From contig NZ_BCRQ01000007.1 of assembly GCF_001552675.1 (NCBI RefSeq), positions 1 to 64,000 of the forward strand: 64,000 bases of DNA, read 5' to 3'. Both the position numbers and the translations under genes were made by a program. Below the pieces are notes generated by a model. It saw only the letters and a list, made by a program, of their open reading frames with translations, did not search any database and was not told where the DNA came from. Source of the DNA: Alicyclobacillus sendaiensis NBRC 100866. Its GTDB lineage: Bacteria; Bacillota; Bacilli; Alicyclobacillales; Alicyclobacillaceae. Of this stretch, positions 50,138 through 64,000 are shown one piece after another. The stretch's first letter is position 1. Each line of letters starts with the position of its first letter.

Positions 50138-51076
50138 CTATTCGTCCCCTGGCTCGACGAGGACAATCCATGTCACGCTTCGCTCAGGATTTTTCTTCTG
50201 CGGTCGGCTTTCGGTTTTCCAGCCGTTCTTGCCAAACAATTCGTTCATCGCACTCGATACCAGTTGATGCGCCCGTTCCGCTGTATTCACCACGAGATCC
50301 GGAAGCAGCTGTTCAATGCGGTTCCTCACGTTGATCCACGTATCTCCGGTGCTCCGCATCCGGTTCATGAACGCTTCGTCACTTTCCAGCTCAGCGCACA
50401 CGTTCCGGAGCAGAGCCTCTTGCAGATCTTCGCCTCTCCTCGACTCGTACCCGCTCTCTTCCGCCTCCCTGGCTTGACTCGCCTGGTCGTCCACGGATTC
50501 GGGATAGCGTGTCGCGCGCCGCTGCCTCGCGGCCATCTGCCGAAGTCGGTCCGCAAACGTGGACAAGGGCTCGCGGTCATAGGTCGGATCGGTGACTTGG
50601 TGCAATTGTTCGAAGGATAGGACGCGGATTGGAATCGGGTCCCCCTGGCTGAGGATCTCGTTGGAGATGCTCCCTGGCTGCTGGGTGATGAAAATTGCGC
50701 CGAGATCGTACTTTCTTCACCCAGGCGATGTACGGCCCTTCACCCGACGTGTACGACGACGCGCCGAGGACGGACTGGGCTTCTTCGACCACCGCGATGG
50801 TGGGATGGTCTTGGCATCTTTCTCGGTGAAGTGCCGCTGGTTGTGCTCGAAGATGCGCTGCAGGACGATTCCGGACAGCACCAGGGCCTGCGAGCCGCGG
50901 ACCTGTGACACGTCGACGATGCACAGCTTGCCCTTGTGAAGCGCGTGCAAGAGCATGTCCAAGAACGCGCTCGACGGATCGTGCAGTATCTGCACGACCT
51001 GCACCATGTTGGCGCGCGTCGCCATGGGTTCGCGCAAGCACCGCCTGTTTCAGTTGTTCGACTTCGTCGAGATCGC
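50138..51076 (-). pseudogene. HerA-like ATPase remnant
   Basis: Three minus-strand frames must be joined to read one protein: GDLDEVEQLKQAVLARTH, then RANMVQVVQILHDPSSAFLD and GKLCIVDVSQVRGSQALVLS, then TIAVVEEAQSVLGASSY (Walker B-like), then KYDLGAIFITQQPGSISNEI and PIPIRVLSFEQLHQVTDPTY to the stop at 50138. Frame changes lie near 51030, 50835 and 50712. The Walker A half is missing, as the remnant begins immediately after the methyltransferase stop, and there is probably an internal deletion after ILSQGD. The family is the HerA/DUF87 hexameric ATPases, which often accompany nucleases or methylases in defence loci. Confidence 0.75.
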
Positions 51077-52053
51077 CTAGGCCTCCTCGAGAGAAGCGTA
51101 CAGGTCGACCTCCAGCGCGGCGCGGCTGCGGACGAACTGGAACTGATCCGCCTGTTTTCGCCCGTTGGATGCGCTGCCGGCATCGGACAGGCGGCACTCC
51201 TTCCACGGCGTGCCGCGGAGGCTCGCGCGCAGGACCTCGATGGACGCGGGCAGCGAGGAGCGGCCGAGTTGCGGATCCGACGCGTAGTCGACGTGGTGCG
51301 GACCGCCGAGTTGCGAAGCCAGTGGTCCGAGACGTACGTCTTCATGTCGAAATAGGGCGGCGAGGTGATGACGTACCGAAAGCGCATCGCAAAATCCTCC
51401 GGAGCGAGCGCGCGGCTGTCCGCCAGCCGAATGTGGCCAGGCACCTTGGCCGGGAGTTCGGCCAGGAGATACCGGGCGCGCCGCTCAATCACGTCGGGCA
51501 CATCCACGTACACGGGCTCAAGCCCCTTCCGCCGCCAGAACCGGACCGCGGCGTCCGGCTTCGTGGCGTACGTCCGCGGCATTTGGTTGGACAAATACGG
51601 CGGCAGCCCTTTGTTGCGCGGCCCGTGCAGCACGCCGAGCACCAGGGCGCGCAAAAGAACATCCTCCTCCGCCTCGGCGCCCGCGAGCATGGCTCGACAC
51701 CTGTTGACGACACCCTCGGCGGTGGCCGAGACGAGCTTCGCCTGGGCAATGGCCGCCGCAATGGGGTTGACGTCCACTCCGACCGTCGGGAACCCCAAAA
51801 CCCGCGCCGCGTAGTTCGTCGTGCCTCGCCCGCAAAACGGATCGAGCACCCAGCCCGGCCGCGCGCCCCGGAGCACCTGGAGCGGGAAGGAGAGCGGAAA
51901 CATCGTGTAATACGGGCTGATGGCGTTGAGCCGCGCCCACGATGAGACGTCCGCGGTTGCGCGAGTTGGTCCAAGTCGGGAAGCAAACCCGCGTCCGTCG
52001 GCTGAGGCAGAGACTTCATGTCCTTTCACGTTCTCGCTTTCCTGTTTCGCCAT
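51077..52053 (-). pseudogene. Frameshifted DNA methyltransferase
   Basis: From the ATG at 52053 the frame encodes a DNA N6-adenine/N4-cytosine-type methyltransferase: VLDPFCGRGTTNYAARVLGF (AdoMet motif I), VGVDVNPIAAAIAQAKL, and the catalytic VITSPPYFDMKTYVSDHWLR (motif IV). At about 51308 the frame breaks; reading continues in another frame with LGGPHHVDYASDPQLGRSSL and ends NGRKQADQFQFVRSRAALEV at a TAG (51079-51077). The C-terminal part looks shortened. About seven bases are missing at the break. The gene is likely inactive, unless the break is a sequencing error. Confidence 0.8.
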
Positions 52054-53743: not shown

Positions 53744-53974
53744 TTATTGCAGGCGATCCCGCGCGTGCGCCTCGTCGCGGATCTCCTCGCGAAACCCATC
53801 GATGGCCCGGCGCCTGCGCTCGTTTTTCGCCACCAGGTTGCGCACGTCCTTCGGGTTCATCTCGTCGGCGTGCGCGGCGAGGAAATCCTCCGCCTCGTGC
53901 AGGTTTTCCATCGTGTTGTGGATGGCCTCCTGCAGGCGCTCCACGTTGTCCGCGCGGTTGTCCGGATTCGGCAT
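53744..53974 (-). CDS. tlp: Small acid-soluble spore protein Tlp
   Basis: A 76-residue protein with MPNPDNRADNVERLQEAIHN and NTMENLHEAEDFLA, followed by KNERRRRAIDGFREEIRDEA: the thioredoxin-like SASP Tlp pattern, found only in endospore formers. The ATG at 53974 follows GGGAGGG. The reading frame is open for 53 codons further upstream, reaching back to the stop of the small membrane gene, but that stretch is Arg/Ala-rich and not part of known Tlp proteins. Expression is expected in the forespore (sigma-G). Confidence 0.9.
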   Translation of the reverse strand: MPNPDNRADNVERLQEAIHNTMENLHEAEDFLAAHADEMNPKDVRNLVAKNERRRRAIDGFREEIRDEAHARDRLQ

Positions 53975-54129
53975 GCGCCATCCCTCCCTCGCAGATTCAC
54001 ACTCGCTAATCTGCTCGGCGAGGGCTCGCCCCATGAGCGAAAGCTGTTGGAAAACGGCCCGCGCTCGCCGCGCTTGGGCCGATTCCCCCGCGCGCCGCGG
54101 GCGACCGGCCAAGCGCGCGGACCGCACCC

Positions 54130-54348
54130 TCACTTCGGCTCCTTGCGGTCCTTTGACGCGCGCTCTTCAAACGCGGCGTATCCCGCCATCGCGCCCATCA
54201 GCATACAGATGAAGCCGATGACGTAGCCGATGAGCCAAAGCGCGGAGTGCGTCTTGTAAAACGCCGTGCTCGTCACCACGATGAGCGCGCCGAGCACGCC
54301 GATGGCGTACAGGTACCTGCGGGCCTTGGCGTCCGGCCGATTGGGCAT
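54130..54348 (-). CDS. Small two-helix membrane protein
   Basis: A 72-residue protein: basic N-terminus, helices at about residues 13-30 and 36-56 (LWLIGYVIGFICMLMGAMAG), then a charged tail. No family recognised. It lies 15 bases after the 195-residue hypothetical gene on the same strand and just upstream of tlp. Confidence 0.6.
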   Translation of the reverse strand: MPNRPDAKARRYLYAIGVLGALIVVTSTAFYKTHSALWLIGYVIGFICMLMGAMAGYAAFEERASKDRKEPK

Positions 54349-54363
54349 GACATCGCGCCCCTT

Positions 54364-54951
54364 TCATTGAACCTCCGCGAGCCAAGGATAATAAATCACG
54401 TCGCCGTTCTCAAACTGCGCTGCGAGCCGCTCCTCGTGCAGCCAATGAGGGTCATACCGGGCGCCGTCGCGCCGGGCGTCGGCGAGGACCTGAGCCCGCG
54501 TGCGAAAGGCGCAGTCGCCCGATTCTGGATGCCAGGTCATCTGCCACCACTGGCCATCGTGTTCGAACCAGGCGATCTGCCACGCGTCATTCCGCCAGTA
54601 ATAGGACGTGACGATATCCGTGGCCGGGTGCGCGAGCAAAAGCTCGTACGCCCGCGCGCGGGCGCTTGCCGGATCGCGCAGGATGAAATCGATCCACGCG
54701 TGCCGCTCGGCAGGGTCGAGCGAGGGCTTGAAGTGGCGAAACGCCTGCAACAGCGCGTACCGCACCCCCGCGAGCTGAATGGATGCCTCCTCCGCCTCGC
54801 GCAGGCGGCGCAGCCAGGTGTGGAGGTCTTCCATCGACGCTCCCTCGCGCACGGGCAGATCCATCGCTCGCTCGGCGAGGCACAGGCGCACGTCCCGGTA
54901 GAGACTCATGCACCCCTTGGCCAACAGTTCATGGGCGACATCCACGGGCAC
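54364..54951 (-). CDS. Hypothetical protein (195 aa)
   Basis: A soluble protein, Trp- and Tyr-rich towards the C-terminus (SYYWRNDAWQIAWFEHDGQW). No family is recognised. The GTG at 54951 is preferred because GGGGGGAG lies five bases upstream; an ATG at 54966 inside that region would add five residues, and MSLYRD further in (54909) is a third option. It follows the zinc dehydrogenase gene by 18 bases, so it may be the end of the metabolic operon, but nothing in it suggests a role there. Confidence 0.55.
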   Translation of the reverse strand: MPVDVAHELLAKGCMSLYRDVRLCLAERAMDLPVREGASMEDLHTWLRRLREAEEASIQLAGVRYALLQAFRHFKPSLDPAERHAWIDFILRDPASARARAYELLLAHPATDIVTSYYWRNDAWQIAWFEHDGQWWQMTWHPESGDCAFRTRAQVLADARRDGARYDPHWLHEERLAAQFENGDVIYYPWLAEVQ

Positions 54952-54969
54952 GCCATCTCCCCCCATCCG

Positions 54970-55995
54970 CTACGGCGCATCGAAGACCACGACGTCGCGC
55001 CCAAACCATGGGTTTTGCAGGGCATCCGGCGCCTCCTCCAGCGACACGCGCCGCCCCACCACGACGTCCGGCTGCACGCGCCCCTCCGCCGCCATGGCGA
55101 GAAGCGCCTCCACGTCCTCGCGCCGCGAGCCGAAACTGCCGACGAGCGCCGCGCCCTTCCTCGCGAGCTTCGCCATCGACACGCCGATCTCGTCCACAGG
55201 CATCGCCACCGTCACCACCTTGCCGCCCGGCCGCAGCACCTCAAGCGCGAAGCGGATGCCCTCCGCAAAGCCGGAGGTGTCGAGCACCACGCCCACGCCG
55301 CCTTTGGCCATGCGCCGCAGCCTGCGCGCCGCGTCCCTTCCGTCCCCCGCGAGCGTCACAAATTCGTCGGCGCCCGACACGAGCGCGAGCGCGCCCGCGT
55401 CCTCGCGCCGGCTCAACACCGCCACCTGGGGCACGCCGAGCGCCTTCGCAATTTGCACGGCCGCGAGCCCAAGCCCGCCCGTGCCGATGACGAGCACCGC
55501 CTCCTCCTCGACCGCGCCGGCCGACACGAGCGCCCGATACGGCGTCGCGTAGGCGTCCACCAGGATGGCGGCCTCGGCCGCATCCAGCCCCTCTGGGCGG
55601 CGAATCGCGTTTTGTGCCGGCACCGCGACGTACTCCGCGTCGCCGCCCGGCCGCGTGAAGCCGATGACCCCTTGGCGCGGGCACAGGTGTTCTTCTCCGC
55701 GCGCGCACGCCGCGCACTCGCCGCACGGCACAAACGGGTGCACCACCACCGGGTCGCCCACGGCCAAGCCCGAAGCACCTTCGCCGAGCGCCGCCACGCG
55801 GCCCGCGATCTCGTGGCCCAGGACGACCGGGTACGACGTGCCAAACGGCGCCCCCTCGCACCGGATGAGCTGGCGGTCGCTCCCGCAGATGCCGCACGCC
55901 TCGACGCGAATCAGCACCTCACCCGGCCCCGGCGCGGGCTCGGGCACATCCGCCACGCGCAGCCCGCCCTCCGGGTCAAACACCAGCGCGCGCAT
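54970..55995 (-). CDS. Zinc-dependent medium-chain alcohol dehydrogenase
   Basis: A 341-residue MDR-family dehydrogenase. CGICGSD and GHEIAGRV carry the catalytic zinc ligands, CGECAACARGEEHLC the four structural-zinc cysteines, and VIGTGGLGLAAVQIAKALGV is the NAD(P)-binding Rossmann motif. It follows the acyl-CoA dehydrogenase by one base and has GGAGTGAC before the ATG, so it belongs to that operon. In a cyclohexanecarboxyl-CoA pathway it could oxidise or reduce a ring hydroxyl; by family alone, a polyol or threonine-dehydrogenase-like activity is equally possible. Confidence 0.85.
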   Translation of the reverse strand: MRALVFDPEGGLRVADVPEPAPGPGEVLIRVEACGICGSDRQLIRCEGAPFGTSYPVVLGHEIAGRVAALGEGASGLAVGDPVVVHPFVPCGECAACARGEEHLCPRQGVIGFTRPGGDAEYVAVPAQNAIRRPEGLDAAEAAILVDAYATPYRALVSAGAVEEEAVLVIGTGGLGLAAVQIAKALGVPQVAVLSRREDAGALALVSGADEFVTLAGDGRDAARRLRRMAKGGVGVVLDTSGFAEGIRFALEVLRPGGKVVTVAMPVDEIGVSMAKLARKGAALVGSFGSRREDVEALLAMAAEGRVQPDVVVGRRVSLEEAPDALQNPWFGRDVVVFDAP

Positions 55996-55996
55996 G

Positions 55997-57223
55997 TCAC
56001 TCCGCCCTCTTCTGTGCGCGATCGCGCCTGCGCGCCTCGGCCAAGAGCGCCTCGGCGATGGTCATCTTCTGCATCTCGAGCGTGCCCTCCTCGAACCAGA
56101 GCGAGCGCGCGTCCCGGTACAGCCGCTCCACCGGGCTTGTCACCGCGTAGCCGATGCCGCCGTAGAGCGAGAGCGCGCCGTCCGTCACCTCGCCCACCAT
56201 GCGGATGGCGTTCGCCTTCGCGATGGCGGCTTCCAGCGAGATGTCGCGGCCCTGATCGTACTTGTACGCCGCGTCGAGGCAGAGGAGCCTGGCCGCCTGA
56301 ATCGCAATCTGCATCTCCGCGAGCCGCATCTGCACCGCCTGCCGGCTCGCGAGCGCCTTGCCGAACGTCGTGCGGCGCCGGACGTGATCGAGCGCGCGGT
56401 CGAGTGCCTCCTGCGCGAGCCCCACGGCGCTCTGCGCGATGCACGCGCGACTCTGATCCAAAAAGCCGCGCACGGCCACGCCAAACCCCTCGCCAATCTC
56501 GCCGAGCACCTCGTCCTCGCCGACTTCGCAGTTGTCAAACTCAATCACGGCGTGCGAGCAGCCCTTGTCGCCCATCATGTGTGGCATGGGCGTGAGCTTC
56601 ATGCCCTTGCGCCCCTGCGGCACGAGGAAGGCCGTCAGCCCCGTGCGGCCTGCGCCGCCCTCCATCTTCGCGATGACGGCGATCACGGCCGCCTCCTCGG
56701 CGAACGTGATGAGGTGCTTGCGCCCGTTCAGCACGAACTTGCCGTTCTGGTACGTCGCGATGGTGCGCAGGTCGATGCCCGTGCCGTTGTCCGGCTCCGT
56801 GAGGGCAAACGCGACGAGCGCGCCCTCGTTCACCAGCTTCTTCAGCCAGTACTCCTGCTGCTCGCGCGTGCCCTGGCCGACCGTCCGCCAGATGCTGTTG
56901 TACGCGTGCACCATCATGCGGATGGTGCCGTGCATGTGCGCGACCTCTTCGAGGATGGGGAAATAGAGCCCGAGCGGGAGCCCCTCGCCGCCGACCCACG
57001 TGGGCTGCGTCAGTTTGTGAAAGCCGAGCTCGCGGATGCGCGCCCAGAGGGCGTCGGGGATGCGCTCATCGCGCTCAATTTGCGCGCCCCACTCGGCACC
57101 CTCCTCCTCGCGGAACTGAATCACCCGGTTGCGGATCTCGTTCGCGCGCGCGACGAGATCGGCGTCGTACGAAGGAAATGACGGCGCGATGGCGTCTCGC
57201 GCCGACGGGTTCAAGATGTCCAT
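55997..57223 (-). CDS. Acyl-CoA dehydrogenase
   Basis: A 408-residue flavoprotein of the acyl-CoA dehydrogenase family. AFALTEPDNGTGIDLRTIAT is the FAD/substrate signature region (usual A.TEP.aGSD, here with GTGID), RRTTFGKALASRQAVQMRLA and YGGIGYAVTSPVERLYRDAR follow, and the catalytic Glu position lies in FEEGTLEMQKM. It could introduce or remove a ring double bond of an alicyclic acyl-CoA or acyl-ACP. It is preceded by the AMP ligase gene (76 bases) and followed by the zinc dehydrogenase. Confidence 0.9.
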   Translation of the reverse strand: MDILNPSARDAIAPSFPSYDADLVARANEIRNRVIQFREEEGAEWGAQIERDERIPDALWARIRELGFHKLTQPTWVGGEGLPLGLYFPILEEVAHMHGTIRMMVHAYNSIWRTVGQGTREQQEYWLKKLVNEGALVAFALTEPDNGTGIDLRTIATYQNGKFVLNGRKHLITFAEEAAVIAVIAKMEGGAGRTGLTAFLVPQGRKGMKLTPMPHMMGDKGCSHAVIEFDNCEVGEDEVLGEIGEGFGVAVRGFLDQSRACIAQSAVGLAQEALDRALDHVRRRTTFGKALASRQAVQMRLAEMQIAIQAARLLCLDAAYKYDQGRDISLEAAIAKANAIRMVGEVTDGALSLYGGIGYAVTSPVERLYRDARSLWFEEGTLEMQKMTIAEALLAEARRRDRAQKRAE

Positions 57224-57299
57224 GGAAGCTCCTCCCTAAGCGCGGTCCGTTCTCACGAAAACCGTGGGGCACCCGCGCCAAGCCCGGGCGCCCCACCCT

Positions 57300-58958
57300 T
57301 CACGCGTTCACGCCTTGGCCCTCGGCCTCGAGCCGGAACCGCTCGCGCAGATCCTTCTTCTTGATCTTCCCGGAGTGCGTCTGCGGGAACTCCGTCATGA
57401 ACTCGAGCCGGTCGGGGAACTGGAACTTCGCAAGCCCCTGTTCGGCCAGGAAGTCGCGCAGCTCGCGCAGCGTGAACGGCTTTGCGCCCTCCTTCAGGAT
57501 GACGCAGGCCACCGTTTGCTGGCCGAGCGTCGGGTCCGGCGCACCGACCACCGCCACGTTCTGCACGGCCTCGTGCTTCGAGATGGCGTCCTCCACGGTC
57601 TTCGGATCGATCTTCGTCCCGCCGCGGTTGATGATGTCGTCCGCCCGCGCGATGAAGATATAGCGGCCGTTTTCGTCCTGGCGCAGGATGTCGCCGGAGT
57701 GGAACCAGCCGTCCTCGTCCCACTGGCGGCGCGCCGCCTCGGGATTGTGATAATAGCCCGCGCTGAAGTTAGGTCCACGCGCCCACATCTCGCCCGGCTC
57801 GCCCGGCTTGACGTCGTTGCCGTCCTCGTCGACCAGGCGGACCTCCGTGCCCGGGATGACGAAGCCGACGGTGGACGAGAGCGCCTCGAGCGGATCGTCC
57901 AGCCGGGTGGCGGTGGCGAGGAAGCCCTCGGTCCAGCCGAACATGCAGCCCACCTTGATGCCGCTGTCGCGCTGCAGCTGCTCGAGCACCGCCTTCGGCA
58001 CCGGCGCGCCGGCGTAAATGAACAGCTTGACGCTCGAGGTGTCGGCCTGCTTGAGGTTCGGCGCGTTGGCCACGTGGATGACGTGCGGCGGCGCGCCGAC
58101 GAGGTACGCCGGCTTGTACTTCTCAATCCACGCGATGACGCGGCTCGCGGAGAACCGGTCGAGGAGCATGATCCGGCCGCCGCTCGCCACGGTCATCATG
58201 ACGCCGGCGAGCATGCCCGTCTGGTGGCAGATGGGCGCGAGGCACAGCACGGCGTCCTCCGGCTGATACCCGAAGTTCTTCGCATAGGCGCGCGCGGCCC
58301 ACAGGTAGTTGGCGTGCAGGTGCACGACGCCCTTCGGCGAACCGGTGGTGCCGGAGGTGAAGACCATCAGGAAAGCGTCGAGCGCCTCGGGCTTGTTGGC
58401 TGCAAGCTCCGCCTCGCCGAGCGTGTCCCCCGCCTCGCGCAGGCTGGCGAAGGTCGTCGCGCCTTCGGGCGCGCGCTCCGGATCGCCCTGCACCACGATG
58501 TGCGTGAGATCGGGCAGCTCCGGTTTCAGGCTCTGCGCCATGTCGTAGAGCGACTCGCCGCGGAAGTAGTCGGCGATGATCCACACCTTGGCGCGCGAGG
58601 TGCGCATGCTCGAGACGATGGCCTGGCGGCCGAGATCGATCTGCAGCGACACGCCGATAGCGCCGATGCGCGCGCAGGCGAACACGGCGACGACATAGTC
58701 GAGCACGTTCGGCAGCTGCAGGGCCACGGTGTCCCCTTTGCGCACGCCCATCCGGTAGAGATGCGCGGCCACGGACTCGATTTCGCGCCACAGCTTCTCG
58801 TAGGTCGCCTCGCGCGTCTCGTCGCGGTGGACGAAGTGCGGATACTTCTTCACGTCCTCGTAGAAGACGTCGACAAACGACTCGTTCGTCCAGTACCCCT
58901 TTTCGAAATACAGCTTGGCACGCTCTTCGCTGAGCGTCCTTCCGGGAAAGTCAAACAT
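57300..58958 (-). CDS. Stand-alone acyl/aryl-AMP ligase
   Basis: A 552-residue adenylate-forming enzyme related to DhbE/EntE-type ligases that load carrier proteins. Motifs: FTSGTTGSPKGVVHLHANYL (P-loop), GWTEGF, the GWFHSGDILRQDENGRYIFI hinge region, RADDIINRGGTKIDPKTVED and the C-terminal catalytic Lys in THSGKIKKKDL. The ATG at 58958 follows GGAGG. An acyl carrier protein gene lies 53 bases upstream on the same strand, so this ligase probably activates a ring carboxylate and transfers it to that carrier. Confidence 0.88.
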   Translation of the reverse strand: MFDFPGRTLSEERAKLYFEKGYWTNESFVDVFYEDVKKYPHFVHRDETREATYEKLWREIESVAAHLYRMGVRKGDTVALQLPNVLDYVVAVFACARIGAIGVSLQIDLGRQAIVSSMRTSRAKVWIIADYFRGESLYDMAQSLKPELPDLTHIVVQGDPERAPEGATTFASLREAGDTLGEAELAANKPEALDAFLMVFTSGTTGSPKGVVHLHANYLWAARAYAKNFGYQPEDAVLCLAPICHQTGMLAGVMMTVASGGRIMLLDRFSASRVIAWIEKYKPAYLVGAPPHVIHVANAPNLKQADTSSVKLFIYAGAPVPKAVLEQLQRDSGIKVGCMFGWTEGFLATATRLDDPLEALSSTVGFVIPGTEVRLVDEDGNDVKPGEPGEMWARGPNFSAGYYHNPEAARRQWDEDGWFHSGDILRQDENGRYIFIARADDIINRGGTKIDPKTVEDAISKHEAVQNVAVVGAPDPTLGQQTVACVILKEGAKPFTLRELRDFLAEQGLAKFQFPDRLEFMTEFPQTHSGKIKKKDLRERFRLEAEGQGVNA

Positions 58959-59011
58959 CGACACGCCTCCACTTCGGGGAGATTGGCCGCCTCGCCCCCG
59001 AGGCGGCGCCA

Positions 59012-59266
59012 TCAGGCGGACAGGCGGCGCTCGATGTAATCGACGACGCCCGCCACGGTGGACAACTGGCCGAAGTCGGCCTCGGGGATCTCGATGTCGA
59101 ACTCGTCCTCAAACGCGACGGCAAGCTCGGTCAGATCCAGGGAGTCCGCGCCGAGATCGTCCACAAACAGGCTGTCGGGTTTGACCTCGGACTCGCTCAC
59201 CTGCAGTTGATTGGCGACCACCTTGCGCACGCGCGCCTCAATATCCTCTCGATTCAGCGTTGCCAT
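59012..59266 (-). CDS. Acyl carrier protein
   Basis: An 84-residue carrier protein with the phosphopantetheine site VDDLGADSLDLTELAVAFED (Ser in DSL) and helices II-IV of the ACP fold (IEIPEADFGQLSTVAGVVDY). It is acidic like AcpP but is embedded in a pathway operon rather than beside fab genes, so it is probably a dedicated carrier for the adjacent ligase. AAAGGAG precedes the ATG. Confidence 0.92.
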   Translation of the reverse strand: MATLNREDIEARVRKVVANQLQVSESEVKPDSLFVDDLGADSLDLTELAVAFEDEFDIEIPEADFGQLSTVAGVVDYIERRLSA

Positions 59267-59290
59267 GTCACATCTCCTTTGCTCGTGGGT

Positions 59291-60091
59291 TTAGAAGCTC
59301 TCAAATCCGCCGGTCAAGAGCGTCAATCCGCCGTCCACCCAGATGACCTGGCCGGTGACGAAACGGCTGAGATCGCTCGCGAGAAACACGGCCACGTCCG
59401 CCACCTCTTCCGGAGACGCGAGCCGGCCGAGCGGGGTGTGCGCCTCCACGTCGCGCCGGTAGGCGTCGTAGTGATCCGCCCCGTAGAAGCGGGCCGATTC
59501 CGTGTCGACGACGCCGGGGTTGATGGCGTTCACGGTGATGTTCTTCGGCGCGGCCTCGCGGGCGAGATAGCGCGTGAGCGCCTCGAGCGCCGCCTTGGCC
59601 GTGCCGAGGGTGGCGTAGTTCGGCAGCGTGAAGGTCGATCCCATGCTCGACATGGTGATGATCCGGCCGCCGCCGCGCCGCTCCATCATGGGGATGACGC
59701 GCTGCGCGGCGAAGACGGTACTGTGGATGACCACGCGGTACGTCTTGTCGAGGTGGTAATCCTTCAGTTGCTCGATGGGCTTGAACGCCGACGCGGCGGC
59801 GTTCGCGACGAAGATGTCGAGATCGCCAAACTCGCGCTCAATCTGGTCGAACGCCTGGTTGAGCTCGTCCTGGCTCTCGAGCTCCGCCTTCACGACCATC
59901 GCGCGCCGACCCAGCTCGCGGATGGCCTGCGCGGTGGCCTCGGCCTCCTCCGGCTGGCGGCGGTAGTGCACCACCACGTCCGCGCCGTGCTTCGCCATCT
60001 GGATGGCGATGGCGCGGCCGATGCCGCGGCTGGATCCGGTGACGAATGCCCGCTTGTCCTTGAGTAACAACAGCGTCGCCTCCTGGCTCAT
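59291..60091 (-). CDS. SDR-family enoyl reductase (FabL/ChcA-like)
   Basis: A 266-residue short-chain dehydrogenase. FVTGSSRGIGRAIAIQMAKH is the TGxxxGxG cofactor motif and ANAAAS replaces NNAG. The catalytic residues are Tyr159 and Lys166 in PNYATLGTAKAALEAL, i.e. Y-x6-K. That spacing is the hallmark of FabL-type enoyl-ACP reductases, not of FabG (Y-x3-K). Streptomyces ChcA, which reduces 1-cyclohexenylcarbonyl-CoA, is also an SDR enoyl reductase. The ATG at 60091 overlaps the previous stop (ATGA); a TTG at 60070, eight bases after AGGAGG, may be the true start. Confidence 0.88.
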   Translation of the reverse strand: MSQEATLLLLKDKRAFVTGSSRGIGRAIAIQMAKHGADVVVHYRRQPEEAEATAQAIRELGRRAMVVKAELESQDELNQAFDQIEREFGDLDIFVANAAASAFKPIEQLKDYHLDKTYRVVIHSTVFAAQRVIPMMERRGGGRIITMSSMGSTFTLPNYATLGTAKAALEALTRYLAREAAPKNITVNAINPGVVDTESARFYGADHYDAYRRDVEAHTPLGRLASPEEVADVAVFLASDLSRFVTGQVIWVDGGLTLLTGGFESF

Positions 60092-62097
60092 TCAATCTCG
60101 TAGGCGGCCATCCAGGCCTCGCGGATGGCCCGCGCCGCGTTGATGTCCTGGCTGTCCCTCGCGCCGCCGACGATGTGGACCCGCACGTGCGGCGGGAGCT
60201 TCTCGGCCCAGGACGTATCCTGAGACAACTGGCCGGTGCAGAGCACCACCTGGTCCGCCGGAACCATTTCCTCCCGCCCGTCCCGCTCGATGCGCACGCC
60301 CTCCGGCGTGATCTCGCGCATGGCCACGTTCGGCACGACGTTCACGCCGAGCCGCTGCATCTCCTGGCGCACCACCCAGCGCGTGCTGCGGCCGATGCCG
60401 CGGCCGATGCGGTCGCTCCGCGCGAGCATGGTGATGGTGCGCTCGATGGGCTTGGGCGCGGGGAGCCCCTGCTCCTCGAAGAACACCTCCGCGTCCGGCG
60501 TCATGCGCCGCCGCGCGCCGAGAAACACCGCCACGTCACAGCCGATGCCGCCCGCGCCGAGGATGACGACGTTTCGCCCCGGCTGCACGCGGCCCATGAG
60601 CAGATCCTGATAGGAGACCACGTGCGGCAGATCCTCGCCCGGAAGGCCTGGCGCCTTGGGCTTCACGCCCACCGCGACGATCACGTCGTCGAATTCGGCG
60701 AGCTCATCCGGCCCAGGCTCTGTCTGCATTGTAACAGTCACGCCGAGGCGTTCAAGCATGACCTCGTAGTACCGGATGGTCTCGAGGAACTCGTCCTTGC
60801 CCGGAATGCGCGAGGCGAGGCGAAATTGCCCGCCGAGTTCCTTGTCCCGCTCGAAGAGCGTGACTTCGTGCCCGCGCTCCGCCGCCGCGCGCGCCGCCTC
60901 GAGCCCCGCCGGCCCCCCGCCGACCACGGCCACGCGCCGCTTGCGGGCCGCCTTCGCGCGCGGCTTGAGCGCCTCGTAGCCGGCGCGCGGGTTGACGAGG
61001 CAGCTCACGACGCGATAGGGCTTGACGAGCGTGTGATCCAGGCACGACTGGTTGCAGGCGATGCACACGTTCAAGCCGTCGCGATCGCCCTCGAGGATCT
61101 TGTTGGCAAACTCCGGGTCGGCGAGCCAGGGCCTCGCGGGCGCGATGAAGTCGAGGAAGCCGTCCGCCACGAGCTCGTTGGCCACCTCGGGTACGTTCAG
61201 GCGGTTGGCGGCGAGCACGGGCACCGAGACGTGCTGGCGCACCATTCCGGCCACGCCGGCAAAGCCACCGCGCGGCACCACCTGCTGCACGGTGGGAACG
61301 GCGGCCTCGTGCCAGCCGATGCCGACGTTGAGCGCGTCCACGCCCGCCTTCTCGAGCGCCTGCGCGAACTGGAGCGTCTCCTCCATCGTCGTGGAGCCCG
61401 GCATGCAGTCGAGCCCAGACATGCGGAAGATGATGGGATACTCCGGCCCCACCGCGCGCCGCACGGCCTCCACCACCTCGATGGGCAGCCGCATGCGGCG
61501 CGCGAAGTCGCCGCCGTACTCGTCGTTGCGGTGGTTGGTGAGGGGCGACAAGAACTGGTTGAGCAGATAGCCTTCCGACCCCATAATCTCGATGGCGTCA
61601 AAGCCAATCTCCTTGGCGGTGCGTGCGGCATTCGCATAGCCCTCGATGGTGCGGAGGATGTCCTCGAGCGTCATCTCGCGCGGCACCTCGCGCGTCAGCC
61701 GCGACGCGAGCGGGCTTGGCGCCACCGCCTGTTGGCCAATCTCCTCCGAAAACGCATACCTGCCCGCGTGATAAAGCTGAAGGGCGATCCGCCCACCCAC
61801 CTCGTGCACGGCCTTGGGCAGCTCGGCGAGGCGTTCCACGTGGCGCGGATTCGTGAGCACAAACATCTGGCCGCCGCCTTCCGGCAGCACGCATGCCCCG
61901 CCCGTGATGATGAGCGCTGCGCCGCCGCGGGCGCGCTCGCGGTAGAATTCACAGAGCCGCACCATCATCTCGTCGTCGTCGTGCTCCAGGCCCATGTGCA
62001 TCGAGCCCATCAGGATGCGGTGCGGAAGCTCGAGCGAACCAATCTTCCCCGGCTGGGCCAACGCCTCGTAGCGCCGTTTCATCCATCTCTCTGCCAT
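60088..62097 (-). CDS. 2,4-dienoyl-CoA reductase-like flavoprotein (OYE/Fe-S)
   Basis: A 669-residue FadH-type enzyme. The N-terminal TIM barrel (about residues 15-340) binds FMN; a 4Fe-4S site follows (CIACNQSCLDH ... VVSCLVNPRAG); two nucleotide-binding domains are marked by VAVVGGGPAGLEAARAAAER and VVILGAGGIGCDVAVFLG. Such enzymes reduce conjugated dienoyl-CoA, or dehydroxylate ring acyl-CoA in some relatives. It heads the leftward operon: GAGGTGA precedes the ATG, and the divergent control region lies behind it. A role in reducing a cyclohexadiene ring is inferred from context. Confidence 0.9.
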   Translation of the reverse strand: MAERWMKRRYEALAQPGKIGSLELPHRILMGSMHMGLEHDDDEMMVRLCEFYRERARGGAALIITGGACVLPEGGGQMFVLTNPRHVERLAELPKAVHEVGGRIALQLYHAGRYAFSEEIGQQAVAPSPLASRLTREVPREMTLEDILRTIEGYANAARTAKEIGFDAIEIMGSEGYLLNQFLSPLTNHRNDEYGGDFARRMRLPIEVVEAVRRAVGPEYPIIFRMSGLDCMPGSTTMEETLQFAQALEKAGVDALNVGIGWHEAAVPTVQQVVPRGGFAGVAGMVRQHVSVPVLAANRLNVPEVANELVADGFLDFIAPARPWLADPEFANKILEGDRDGLNVCIACNQSCLDHTLVKPYRVVSCLVNPRAGYEALKPRAKAARKRRVAVVGGGPAGLEAARAAAERGHEVTLFERDKELGGQFRLASRIPGKDEFLETIRYYEVMLERLGVTVTMQTEPGPDELAEFDDVIVAVGVKPKAPGLPGEDLPHVVSYQDLLMGRVQPGRNVVILGAGGIGCDVAVFLGARRRMTPDAEVFFEEQGLPAPKPIERTITMLARSDRIGRGIGRSTRWVVRQEMQRLGVNVVPNVAMREITPEGVRIERDGREEMVPADQVVLCTGQLSQDTSWAEKLPPHVRVHIVGGARDSQDINAARAIREAWMAAYEIE

Positions 62098-62146
62098 GCT
62101 GTCACCTCGTCATCCCGGCCGCGCTCGTCCGCGCGGCGCGCATGTT

Positions 62147-62234
62147 TTCGTACCTGGTCTTATAAGCTGATATTAACACCTGGTATTGAATCCGTCGACC
62201 GAGCGGTGGTAGAATGCTTATCACCAGGTACGAA
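62147..62234. promoter_or_regulatory. Divergent control region with three ACCTGGT sites
   Basis: Three copies of ACCTGGT lie in 88 bases: 62152-62158 (plus), 62178-62184 (plus) and 62223-62229 (minus). The outer two are part of a longer match, TTCGTACCTGGT-n-ATAAGC (62147-62167) against GCTTATCACCAGGTACGAA (62216-62234), differing by two extra bases in the first copy. A TTGAAT-18-TAGAAT pair (62186-62215) could be the rightward promoter; it lies between the second and third sites. The arrangement is that of operators for a local repressor. Confidence 0.75.
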
Positions 62235-62259
62235 TTTTGTACGGAAAGGGGAAGCGCCC

Positions 62260-63879
62260 GTGAGCGCTCCTTTGTTCTTGGAACAGTTTGAATCGACGCT
62301 TCGGACCCAGCCGGACCAACTCGCCGTGATTGACCTCAGCGGCGATGCGCCGGTCACGCTCACCTATGCCGAACTCGATGCACTGGCGACGCGCATCGCC
62401 GCGCGCCTCGTGCAGCTTGGCGTCGAGCCCGGCGAGGCCGTGGCCTATCAATTGCCGAGCGGTTGGCCGTTTGTGGCCATCACGCTCGCCATCTGGAAGG
62501 CGGGCGCCACGCCCTGCCCGATTTTGCCGCAGCTCCGCGAGCGCGAAGTGGCCTTCATCCTGCAGTCCTCGGAAAGCCGCGTGTACATTGCGCCGGACGA
62601 GTTCCGCCGCTTCGACTACCGGCCGCTCGTGGACCTCGTTCGGCGCGAGGTGCCGCGCGTCGAGCACACCGTCCTCGTGCCGAGCTCGCCGTACACCCCG
62701 CAAGCGACGGATCTCGGCGGCCTCATCGCGAGCGAGGCCGAGGCAAAAGCCCGCGCGGCAGAACTCGAGGCAAGGCGGCCCGGCCCTGACAGCCACTCGC
62801 AGCTGCTCTACACGTCCGGCACCACCGGCGAACCCAAGGGCGTGCTGCACACGCATCGGACGCTCTCGGAGGCGCTCCTCATCCACACGCGGACGCTCGG
62901 GCTCACGGCGAAGGACCGGATCTGGGTCCCTTCCCCGACCGCTCACCAGACAGGATTTCTCTACGGAATGCTCGTTTCCTTCTATATCGGGGCGCCGGGG
63001 ATCTATCACGCCATTTGGGACGTGGAGAAGGCGCGCGCGGCCATCGAGGCGTGGGGCGCGACGTTCGTCCAGGCCGCGATGCCGTTCTTGTCGGACATCA
63101 CCCGCGCTGACAAGCCGCCGAAGGGCCTGCGGCTCTTCATTGCGACGGGCGCGGCCATCCCGCGCCAACTCGCGCAGGAGGCGCGGGAGAAGCTCCAGTG
63201 CGCCGTGGTGGGGGCCTGGGGATCCACCGAGTCCTGCCTCGTCACCGTCGGCCGCCCCTCGGATCCGCCGGAGAAGCTCTGGGGCACGGACGGGCGCGTG
63301 CTCGACGGCATGCAGATTCGCGTGGTGGACGACGAAGGCCGCGAGCTCCCGCCCGGCACCGAAGGCAACTTCCAGGTGAAAACCCCCGCCATGTTCGTCA
63401 CCTATCTTCACCACCCCGAGTGGTACGAGGCGGCCATGACGGAAGACGGGTTCTTTGATACGGGCGATCTCGCCGTGATCGACCAGGACGGCTATCTGCG
63501 CATCACCGGGCGCAAGAAGGACGTGGTAAACCGGGGCGGCGAGAAGATCCCGGTGGTGGAGATTGAGGACCTGCTGTATCAGCATCCGGCCATCGCGGAC
63601 GCGGCCGTCGTCGCAATGCCGGACGAGCGGCTCGGCGAGCGCGCCTGCGCGTACGTGGTGCTCAAGCCTGGGGCCAAGCGGCTGGAACTGTGTGACATCA
63701 CGGACTTCCTCGGCGAGCAGGGCATGGCAAAGATCTATTGGCCGGAGCGGCTCGAAATCATCGACGAGATGCCGCGGACGGCGAGCGGCAAGATCCAGAA
63801 GTACGTGCTGCGCCAGGACATCCAGCAAAAGCTCGAGCGCGAGCGCGCGGGCGCGGCGGAAGCGAGGGAGCGCGCGTGA
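62260..63879 (+). CDS. AMP-dependent acid-CoA ligase
   Basis: A 539-residue adenylate-forming ligase. LLYTSGTTGEPKGVLHTHRT is the P-loop, WGSTESCL the A5-like motif, GFFDTGDLAVIDQDGYLRIT and GRKKDVVNRGGEKIPVVEIE the hinge, and RTASGKIQKYVLRQ carries the catalytic Lys. The pattern is that of the cyclohexanecarboxylate-CoA/2,3-dihydroxybenzoate-AMP ligase group. GTG start at 62260 after AAAGGGG; the long frame upstream is spurious. Its stop overlaps the start of a second acyl-CoA dehydrogenase gene, so the rightward arm is also an operon. Confidence 0.9.
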   Translation: MSAPLFLEQFESTLRTQPDQLAVIDLSGDAPVTLTYAELDALATRIAARLVQLGVEPGEAVAYQLPSGWPFVAITLAIWKAGATPCPILPQLREREVAFILQSSESRVYIAPDEFRRFDYRPLVDLVRREVPRVEHTVLVPSSPYTPQATDLGGLIASEAEAKARAAELEARRPGPDSHSQLLYTSGTTGEPKGVLHTHRTLSEALLIHTRTLGLTAKDRIWVPSPTAHQTGFLYGMLVSFYIGAPGIYHAIWDVEKARAAIEAWGATFVQAAMPFLSDITRADKPPKGLRLFIATGAAIPRQLAQEAREKLQCAVVGAWGSTESCLVTVGRPSDPPEKLWGTDGRVLDGMQIRVVDDEGRELPPGTEGNFQVKTPAMFVTYLHHPEWYEAAMTEDGFFDTGDLAVIDQDGYLRITGRKKDVVNRGGEKIPVVEIEDLLYQHPAIADAAVVAMPDERLGERACAYVVLKPGAKRLELCDITDFLGEQGMAKIYWPERLEIIDEMPRTASGKIQKYVLRQDIQQKLERERAGAAEARERA

Positions 63880-64000
63880 AGACGTTCCTCGAGTGGCAAG
63901 AGGATGTGAACCGGTATCTCGCGGGCCCGGCCCGGTCGTGGTCCGAGGCCATCGAGCGGACGGGCAAGGTGCCGGAAGCACTGTGGCGCGAGCTTCGCGA
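63876..64000 (+). CDS. Probable acyl-CoA dehydrogenase, 5' end only
   Basis: A GTG at 63876 overlaps the ligase stop (GTGA) and the frame is open to the window edge for 41 codons. The visible sequence KTFLEWQEDVNRYLAGPARS then TGKVPEALWRELR resembles the N-terminal helix of acyl-CoA dehydrogenases (compare RIPDALWARIRELGF in the dehydrogenase at 56-57 kb). The assignment rests on this short stretch and on context. Confidence 0.55.
   Translation, partial: MKTFLEWQEDVNRYLAGPARSWSEAIERTGKVPEALWRELR

What the first reader, a model, noticed from the sequence alone, without database searches (positions are those of the whole stretch)
53744..64000. Candidate cyclohexanecarboxyl-CoA (omega-cyclohexyl fatty acid starter) gene cluster
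Seen: a divergent cluster combining a dienoyl-CoA-reductase-like flavoprotein, a FabL-type SDR, a dedicated ACP, an AMP ligase, an acyl-CoA dehydrogenase and a zinc alcohol dehydrogenase on one arm, with a second acid-CoA ligase and the start of a second acyl-CoA dehydrogenase on the other. Known: Alicyclobacillus makes omega-cyclohexyl fatty acids from a shikimate-derived cyclohexanecarboxyl-CoA starter, and Streptomyces clusters for this starter contain an SDR enoyl reductase (ChcA) with acyl-CoA dehydrogenase and ligase genes. Inferred: this operon performs activation, ring dehydration/reduction steps on an ACP or CoA carrier. The presence of a private ACP would be a distinctive feature.
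Basis: partly seen in the sequence, partly recalled or inferred. Interest (0 to 1): 0.85.

Follow-up and report, generated by a model that had tools for sequence, protein, structure and literature searches.

The report
Cyclohexane fatty-acid starter gene cassette
These genes are very probably the ones that let heat- and acid-loving Alicyclobacillus bacteria turn shikimate into the cyclohexane ring that caps their unusual membrane fatty acids, and the cassette matches a known Streptomyces antibiotic-starter cassette except that one expected part is missing here.

Summary
The core is OYE/dienoyl-CoA-reductase-like flavoprotein + FabL-like SDR on the minus arm, and acid-CoA ligase + acyl-CoA dehydrogenase on the plus arm, followed just past the window end by a shikimate-pathway DAHP synthase. 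In 10 of 396 genomes of one actinomycete family (probably Streptomycetaceae), orthologues lie in one fixed order: [EPSPS-like, ligase]–dehydrogenase–SDR–OYE, once directly beside a modular PKS. That is the published order plmJK–plmL–chcA–plmM of the phoslactomycin cyclohexanecarboxyl-CoA genes. All 15 genomes of the window's genus carry it, including A. acidocaldarius and A. acidoterrestris, which make ω-cyclohexyl lipids. In 399 sampled Bacillota genomes only the window's own has the dehydrogenase.

Two corrections. The "private ACP" operon (ACP–ligase–dehydrogenase–ADH) is a separate unit: unlinked in some relatives and present in genomes without the cassette. And the EPSPS-like (PlmK) part, found in the other lineages' cassettes, is missing from this genus and three related lineages, so it must be dispensable or replaced.

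No lipid or enzyme experiment was possible, and the phenotypes of cassette-negative genomes could not be checked.

The parts
60088..62097 (-). OYE/2,4-dienoyl-CoA-reductase-type FMN/FAD/[4Fe-4S] flavoprotein, 669 aa; PlmM-type reductase (core)
   Evidence: Pfam Oxidored_FMN + Pyr_redox_2; best solved relative E. coli 2,4-dienoyl-CoA reductase 1ps9, E=1e-162; CxxCx3C...C motif at residue 345; conserved in cassettes of two phyla
59291..60091 (-). FabL-like SDR enoyl reductase, 266 aa; ChcA-type (core)
   Evidence: best NCBIfam FabL PRK08063, 260 bits, under its 328 cutoff; best solved relative the FabL-type enoyl-ACP reductase 3oic; enoyl-reductase YX6K motif in all SDRs aligned
62098..62259 (.). 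divergent promoter region between the two arms
   Evidence: 162 bp; repeated operator-like palindrome
62147..62163 (+). operator-like repeat 1: TTCGTACCTGGTCTTAT
62173..62189 (+). operator-like repeat 2: TTAACACCTGGTATTGA (most conserved copy in the genus)
62218..62234 (-). operator-like repeat 3: TTCGTACCTGGTGATAA
62260..63879 (+). acid-CoA ligase (LIG2); proposed shikimate-CoA ligase, equivalent of the ligase half of PlmJK (core)
   Evidence: best NCBIfam cyclohexanecarboxylate-CoA ligase TIGR03208, 486 bits, under its 792 cutoff; streptomycete-type orthologue hits the same model best, 448 bits; alignment A2
63876..64000 (+). start of acyl-CoA-dehydrogenase-family flavoprotein (ACAD2), PlmL-type (core); continues to contig position 65033, 385 aa; followed outside the window by a DAHP synthase at contig 65030-66061 (+)
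   Evidence: catalytic-base region FEEGT conserved in the 37 sequences aligned (FEEGP in one)
59012..59266 (-). acyl carrier protein, first gene of a separate ACP operon joined to this locus
   Evidence: Pfam PP-binding; operon found unlinked elsewhere
57300..58958 (-). AMP ligase (LIG1) of the aryl-acid adenylation type, ACP operon
   Evidence: best solved relatives salicylate-AMP ligase 5wm2, PchD and DHB-AMP ligases
55997..57223 (-). acyl-CoA dehydrogenase (ACAD1), ACP operon
54970..55995 (-). zinc-dependent alcohol dehydrogenase, ACP operon
54364..54966 (-). 200-aa ORF without family; conserved neighbour in much of the genus, role unknown, probably not part of the pathway
   Evidence: no Pfam or NCBIfam match; 38-86% identity in relatives

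Best explanation
The locus makes cyclohexanecarboxyl-CoA from shikimate, as the primer for the omega-cyclohexyl fatty acids that dominate Alicyclobacillus membranes. The DAHP synthase feeds the shikimate pathway. LIG2 joins shikimate to CoA. ACAD2 (PlmL type), OYE (PlmM type) and the SDR (ChcA type) alternately remove water and reduce ring double bonds until the ring is saturated. The product then primes fatty acid synthesis through the ordinary FabH route. Shown here: gene content, orthology and order, conserved catalytic motifs, family distribution, and co-occurrence with omega-cyclohexyl lipids in named species. Inferred: the substrate and order of each step, and the FabH hand-over. The EPSPS-like (PlmK) part used by actinomycete cassettes has been lost here, so its step is either unnecessary or done by another enzyme. 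The ACP-LIG1-ACAD1-ADH operon on the same arm is a second, separable unit of uncertain role.
For: (1) Ten of 396 genomes in the family of G297 (7-11 Mb, probably Streptomycetaceae) carry the ACAD2 orthologue. All ten have [EPSPS-like, LIG2]-ACAD2-SDR in that fixed order; the OYE is present in nine (in two pieces in one) and was not detected in the extracted stretch of two others where listed as such in the full report; G297's cassette abuts a type I PKS. The published order is plmJK (ligase) - plmL (acyl-CoA dehydrogenase) - ChcA (cyclohexenylcarbonyl-CoA reductase) - plmM (NADH:FMN oxidoreductase), listed among the starter genes for CHC (PMC5852498). (2) Identity of the window's proteins to the actinobacterial ones is 46-58% (ligase, dehydrogenase) and 38-48% (SDR, OYE). 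(3) The plus arm continues into a DAHP synthase (TIGR01361, 406 bits, cutoff 268) with overlapping ends, next to ACAD2 throughout the genus. (4) The cassette is in all 15 genomes of the genus. G002 and G004 are A. acidocaldarius DSM 446 and A. acidoterrestris DSM 3922 by exact chromosome length; A. fastidiosus, A. hesperidum, A. sacchari and A. acidiphilus are named. All six are listed as omega-cyclohexane producers (PMC5023266); DSM 446 has about 51% + 33% omega-cyclohexane acids, and work on their origin from shikimate is cited there (PMC3035248). (5) The SDR has the enoyl-reductase YX6K motif in every sequence aligned. (6) In actinobacterial genome G084 the cassette is followed directly by a beta-ketoacyl-ACP synthase gene. 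(7) The ACAD2 orthologue is found only in the window's own genome among 399 sampled Bacillota genomes.
Against: The EPSPS-like component is absent from the window's genome. A. tengchongensis CGMCC1504 carries the cassette although the species is listed as omega-cycloheptane. The 17 cassette-negative genomes of the family could not be named, so the absence side of the phenotype correlation is untested. No biochemical data were produced here.
Confidence: 0.9

Rival explanations
1. A catabolic cluster that degrades cyclohexanecarboxylate or related alicyclic acids (Bad/Ali type): the ligase activates cyclohexanecarboxylate and the acyl-CoA dehydrogenases start ring oxidation.
For: Ligase and dehydrogenases hit TIGR03208, NF043006 and TIGR03207, models of that pathway.
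Against: All those hits are far below the curated cut-offs (486 vs 792; 217 vs 650; 170 vs 575). No hydratase, hydroxyacyl dehydrogenase or ring-opening hydrolase lies in the cluster. Two reductases and a DAHP synthase point to synthesis. The same cassette lies beside a PKS in a streptomycete-type genome.
Confidence: 0.04
2. The cassette makes the starter, but the ACP-LIG1-ACAD1-ADH operon is also an obligatory part, doing some ring steps on the ACP, perhaps in place of the lost EPSPS-like enzyme.
For: Of 24 cassette genomes in the family, the ACP operon is joined to the OYE-SDR arm in the same direction in 18 of 19 that lack the EPSPS-like gene and in 0 of 5 that have it. LIG1 resembles aryl-acid-AMP ligases that load carrier proteins.
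Against: The ACP operon exists without the cassette (G018, G029) and the cassette without LIG1 (G028). The 18 genomes are mostly one genus, so the pattern may be one or two events; deep nodes of the tree are weakly supported. G019 has the EPSPS-like gene and an adjacent, inverted ACP-LIG1-ACAD1.
Confidence: 0.2
3. An ordinary fatty-acid degradation or remodelling cluster (ligase, dehydrogenase, dienoyl-CoA reductase for unsaturated fatty acids).
For: Each protein belongs to a family that also serves beta-oxidation.
Against: The ACAD2 orthologue (E about 1e-170 to 1e-215) stands far above background dehydrogenases (E 1e-60 to 1e-86) and is found in CHC-type cassettes. DAHP synthase linkage and the EPSPS-like gene in related cassettes have no place in beta-oxidation.
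Confidence: 0.03

Closest known systems
CHC-CoA starter genes of phoslactomycin-family clusters (plmJK, plmL, chcA, plmM; pnP1-P4; lmP1-P4)
   Same: Ligase, acyl-CoA dehydrogenase, ChcA-type SDR and NADH:FMN oxidoreductase; same order in the streptomycete-type loci examined here
   Different: Alicyclobacillus splits the cassette into two divergent arms, adds a DAHP synthase, joins an ACP operon, lacks the EPSPS-like part, and serves membrane fatty acids instead of a polyketide
Streptomyces collinus ansatrienin CHC-CoA cluster (Cropp, Wilson and Reynolds 2000; known to me by citation and memory)
   Same: ChcA-type enoyl reductase with accessory genes making CHC-CoA from shikimate
   Different: sequence not available with these tools; compared only through the phoslactomycin family
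Solirubrobacterales/Conexibacter cassettes (L058, L075, L097, L188)
   Same: EPSPS-like, LIG2, ACAD2, OYE and in two of them SDR, in one direction
   Different: product unknown; two lack the SDR in the cassette
Bad/Ali cyclohexanecarboxylate degradation
   Same: ligase and acyl-CoA dehydrogenase superfamilies
   Different: below all equivalog cut-offs, no ring-opening genes, reductive gene content

Membership tests
CHC-CoA starter cassette (Plm/Ans/Chc type) | ChcA-type SDR enoyl reductase | tested here: met
   38-43% identity to the SDRs of the actinobacterial cassettes; YX6K motif in all
CHC-CoA starter cassette (Plm/Ans/Chc type) | PlmL-type acyl-CoA-dehydrogenase flavoprotein | tested here: met
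   ACAD2 54-58% identity, far above background dehydrogenases
CHC-CoA starter cassette (Plm/Ans/Chc type) | PlmM-type NADH:FMN oxidoreductase | tested here: met
   OYE 44-48% identity, in the same cassette position
CHC-CoA starter cassette (Plm/Ans/Chc type) | acid-CoA ligase of PlmJK type | tested here: met
   LIG2 46-51% identity; same best NCBIfam model
CHC-CoA starter cassette (Plm/Ans/Chc type) | EPSPS-like (PlmK) component | tested here: not met
   Own genome has two MurA and one canonical AroA only; EPSPS-like orthologue absent from all 15 genomes of the genus but present in G019, G033, G034, G036, G040 and in the actinobacterial cassettes examined. Whether this part is essential to the family is not established, so I claim 'works like, and is orthologous in four core genes', with this difference stated.
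CHC-CoA starter cassette (Plm/Ans/Chc type) | presence in organisms that make a CHC-derived product | tested here: met
   named omega-cyclohexyl producers carry it; A. tengchongensis is a listed exception
CHC-CoA starter cassette (Plm/Ans/Chc type) | absence in relatives that lack omega-cyclohexyl lipids | tested here: inconclusive
   17 of 41 family genomes lack it but they are unnamed, so their lipids are unknown
CHC-CoA starter cassette (Plm/Ans/Chc type) | enzymatic conversion of shikimate to CHC-CoA | not testable with these tools
   needs biochemistry
Bad/Ali cyclohexanecarboxylate degradation | ligase and dehydrogenase above equivalog cut-offs (TIGR03208, TIGR03207, NF043006) | tested here: not met
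   486 vs 792, 170 vs 575, 217 vs 650 bits
FapR regulon | fapO operators at this locus and at the fapR operon | tested here: inconclusive
   sites resemble B. subtilis fapO TTAGTACCTAGTCTTAA (PMC12281612) and fapR exists, but no comparable site turned up at the fapR operon, and the reversed-pattern control gave more hits than the pattern

The most novel reading that the evidence does not exclude
In Alicyclobacillus the EPSPS-like (PlmK) enzyme of the cyclohexane-starter pathway was replaced by a captured ACP operon (ACP, aryl-acid-type ligase, second acyl-CoA dehydrogenase, zinc ADH), so that one of the three ring deoxygenations now runs on an acyl carrier protein instead of CoA.
Probability: 0.15. 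Interest if true: 0.8.

Novelty: new variant of a known kind. Interest (0 to 1): 0.62.

Why it matters
ω-Cyclohexyl fatty acids gave Alicyclobacillus its name, and their origin from shikimate has been known since 1972. The Alicyclobacillus genome papers consulted here do not name the genes, and I found no report that does (a paper outside the library may). This gives a precise set of four core genes plus a linked DAHP synthase, conserved across the genus, that can be deleted, expressed or transplanted. The absence of the EPSPS-like part in active producers is a natural experiment on what the pathway really needs, and would interest people who engineer CHC starters for drugs such as doramectin.

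Tried and rejected
(a) ACP operon as part of the pathway: linked in 18 cassette genomes but dissociable both ways; demoted. (b) Strict mutual exclusion of EPSPS-like gene and ACP operon: my first reading from the cluster maps; the genome-wide LIG1 search showed the ACP operon elsewhere in EPSPS-like-positive genomes, so only physical linkage correlates. (c) FapR control: the three repeats look like fapO, but a relaxed search found no such site at the fapR operon and the control pattern gave more hits; left open. (d) First thought that the EPSPS-like protein had lost the equivalent of E. coli Arg124: wrong on alignment (Arg124, Asp313, Arg344, His385-Arg386 are kept; Ser23, Arg100, Ser169 and Lys411 are changed in all sequences that cover them; residue numbers from memory). 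(e) Degradation and β-oxidation readings: see rivals. (f) Literature: the paper I remember as decisive (Skyrud, Flores and Zhang, ACS Catal 2020, a shikimoyl-CoA synthetase and a FAD-dependent dehydratase for CHC-CoA) is not in the library, so its content is used only as a lead.
Full report
WHAT IS THERE. The window is contig 7 (bases 1-64000 of 66216) of a 2.79-Mb genome. Minus arm, in transcription order: OYE flavoprotein (60088-62097), SDR (59291-60091), ACP (59012-59266), AMP ligase LIG1 (57300-58958), acyl-CoA dehydrogenase ACAD1 (55997-57223), zinc ADH (54970-55995), then a 200-aa ORF, a 72-aa ORF and spore protein Tlp. Plus arm: ligase LIG2 (62260-63879), ACAD2 (from 63876 to contig position 65033), and a DAHP synthase (65030-66061) whose start overlaps the end of ACAD2. 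DAHP synthase is the first enzyme of the shikimate pathway (textbook knowledge).

CONSERVATION IN THE FAMILY. The OYE orthologue is found in 24 of 41 family genomes, including all 15 of the genus. In the loci examined, AROF-ACAD2-LIG2 diverges from OYE-SDR; AROF was not seen next to ACAD2 in G026, G034 and G028 or in the contig fragment of G037. G002 has a 3,018,755-bp chromosome and G004 one of 4,222,202 bp, the published lengths for A. acidocaldarius DSM 446 and A. acidoterrestris DSM 3922. Named loci include A. mali, A. fructus, A. sacchari, A. hesperidum, A. suci, A. fastidiosus and A. acidiphilus. Table 1 of PMC5023266 lists A. acidocaldarius, acidoterrestris, fastidiosus, hesperidum, sacchari and acidiphilus as ω-cyclohexane species; DSM 446 has about 51% and 33% of the two ω-cyclohexane acids (PMC3035248). 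A. tengchongensis CGMCC1504 has the cassette, 96.2% identical at nucleotide level to A. hesperidum over 11 kb, but the table lists that species as ω-cycloheptane.

MATCH TO THE ACTINOBACTERIAL CASSETTE. A profile of ACAD2 was searched in 395 genomes of class Actinomycetes (3 hits), 396 genomes of the family of G297 (10 hits) and 399 Bacillota (only the window's own genome). Background dehydrogenases reach E 1e-60 to 1e-86, the hits about 1e-170 to 1e-190. One weaker hit, G428 (1e-114), shows no cassette. In G084 and the ten G297-family genomes the order is [EPSPS-like, LIG2]-ACAD2-SDR. OYE follows in G084 and in eight of the ten (in two pieces in one of these, L221); in the other two (L218, L223) the search did not detect it in the stretch taken. 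In G297 and G084 the EPSPS-like and ligase parts form one ORF of about 1000 aa, and several others look the same. G297's cassette lies next to a type I PKS; G084's is followed by a β-ketoacyl-ACP synthase gene. Solirubrobacterales and Conexibacter have the same cassette, two without the SDR. The lactomycin paper lists plmJK (AMP ligase), plmL (short-chain CoA dehydrogenase), ChcA (cyclohexenylcarbonyl-CoA reductase) and plmM (NADH:FMN oxidoreductase) in this order, and says that six genes of the cluster serve the biosynthesis of the CHC starter (PMC5852498). That is the basis for naming ACAD2 PlmL type, the SDR ChcA type and OYE PlmM type.

THE MISSING EPSPS-LIKE PART. Five family genomes (G019, G033, G034, G036, G040) and a Bacillota MAG (L041) have an EPSPS-like gene between OYE and LIG2. 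It differs from canonical EPSPS at the same positions in all sequences of both phyla that cover them: SKY for SKS, Q or Y for the Arg of the GxxGT motif, loss of one Ser of the SSQ motif, Ile for the Lys before the last motif; other active-site residues are kept. It still passes the TIGR01356 cut-off (297 vs 287 bits), so automated annotation would call it AroA. The window's genome has two MurA and one ordinary AroA. No genome of the genus has the EPSPS-like gene: the true orthologues score E 1e-250 or better, and the only hits in the genus are ordinary AroA at about 1e-62. A tree of LIG2+ACAD2+OYE groups Alicyclobacillaceae with L041 as sister; G028, without the gene, groups with G033/G034, which have it (support 0.99), so it was probably lost at least twice, with the caveat of a fragmented G028 assembly and weak deep nodes.

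THE ACP OPERON. LIG1 orthologues are in 29 of 41 family genomes. In G033, G034, G036 and G040 ACP-LIG1-ACAD1-ADH is away from the cassette; in G018 and G029 it exists without the cassette; G015 and the g5 genomes keep only ACP-LIG1; G028 has the cassette but no LIG1. It is therefore a separate unit that was joined to the OYE-SDR arm in the genus, in G026/G027 and in G037. LIG1 is closest in the PDB to salicylate- and DHB-AMP ligases, which load carrier proteins. Its substrate is unknown.

REGULATION. Three copies of a 17-bp palindrome-like site (TTMRYACCTGGTNWTRA) lie in the 162-bp promoter region; at one mismatch these are the only hits in the window's genome and in G002. Two copies or more, allowing two mismatches, are found in the other genus loci scanned. 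They resemble B. subtilis fapO, but FapR control is not shown.

MECHANISM, SHOWN AND INFERRED. Shown: orthology, order, motifs (YX6K in the SDR; CxxCx3C...C in 34 of 36 OYE sequences; FEEGT in ACAD2), distribution and co-occurrence with lipids. Inferred: LIG2 makes shikimoyl-CoA; ACAD2 acts as a flavin-dependent dehydratase (a role I recall from a 2020 paper that I could not open); OYE reduces dienoyl-CoA intermediates; the SDR performs enoyl reductions including the last one; CHC-CoA primes fatty acid synthesis. Three dehydrations and four two-electron reductions are needed in all (stoichiometry of shikimate to cyclohexanecarboxylate).

CORRECTION OF A COUNT. In the evidence field of the best explanation the OYE count is worded loosely; the count that holds is the one given above (eight of the ten G297-family loci with OYE, one of these in two pieces; two without a detected OYE).

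VERDICT. It is a known kind of cassette in a new setting, with an informative loss.

Noticed in passing
window 50717-52019 (-): A DNA-methyltransferase-like ORF (DPFCGRGTTNY, TSPPYFDMKTYVSDHW) whose reading frame seems to change near 51300: candidate frameshifted gene.
   Followed up: no
window 62147-62234: Three copies of a palindrome-like 17-bp site, nearly unique in the genome, in the divergent promoter; the regulator is unknown.
   Followed up: partly
L117:3501-4343, L119:5034-5900: Cassette DAHP synthases of 280-288 aa without the N-terminal extension of the window's 343-aa copy; perhaps released from feedback control.
   Followed up: partly
L127:3118-4239 and 9761-10888 (G028): Two ACAD2-type genes in one cassette neighbourhood.
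   Followed up: no
L046 / L124-L125: A. tengchongensis CGMCC1504 carries the full cassette although the species is listed as omega-cycloheptane; strain identity or phenotype needs checking.
   Followed up: partly
L185:6775-15215 (G084): A 2.1-Mb, 67% GC actinobacterial genome with the cassette between pupylation-type genes and a beta-ketoacyl-ACP synthase gene: possible unrecognised cyclohexyl-lipid producer.
   Followed up: partly
L118:6967-8310, L116:6959-8311 and others: EPSPS-like proteins with altered active-site residues that still pass the curated AroA cut-off, so they are likely to be misannotated as AroA.
   Followed up: yes
L201-L203: ACP-LIG1-SDR-ligase operons in genomes of genus g5 without the CHC cassette; function unknown.
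   Followed up: no
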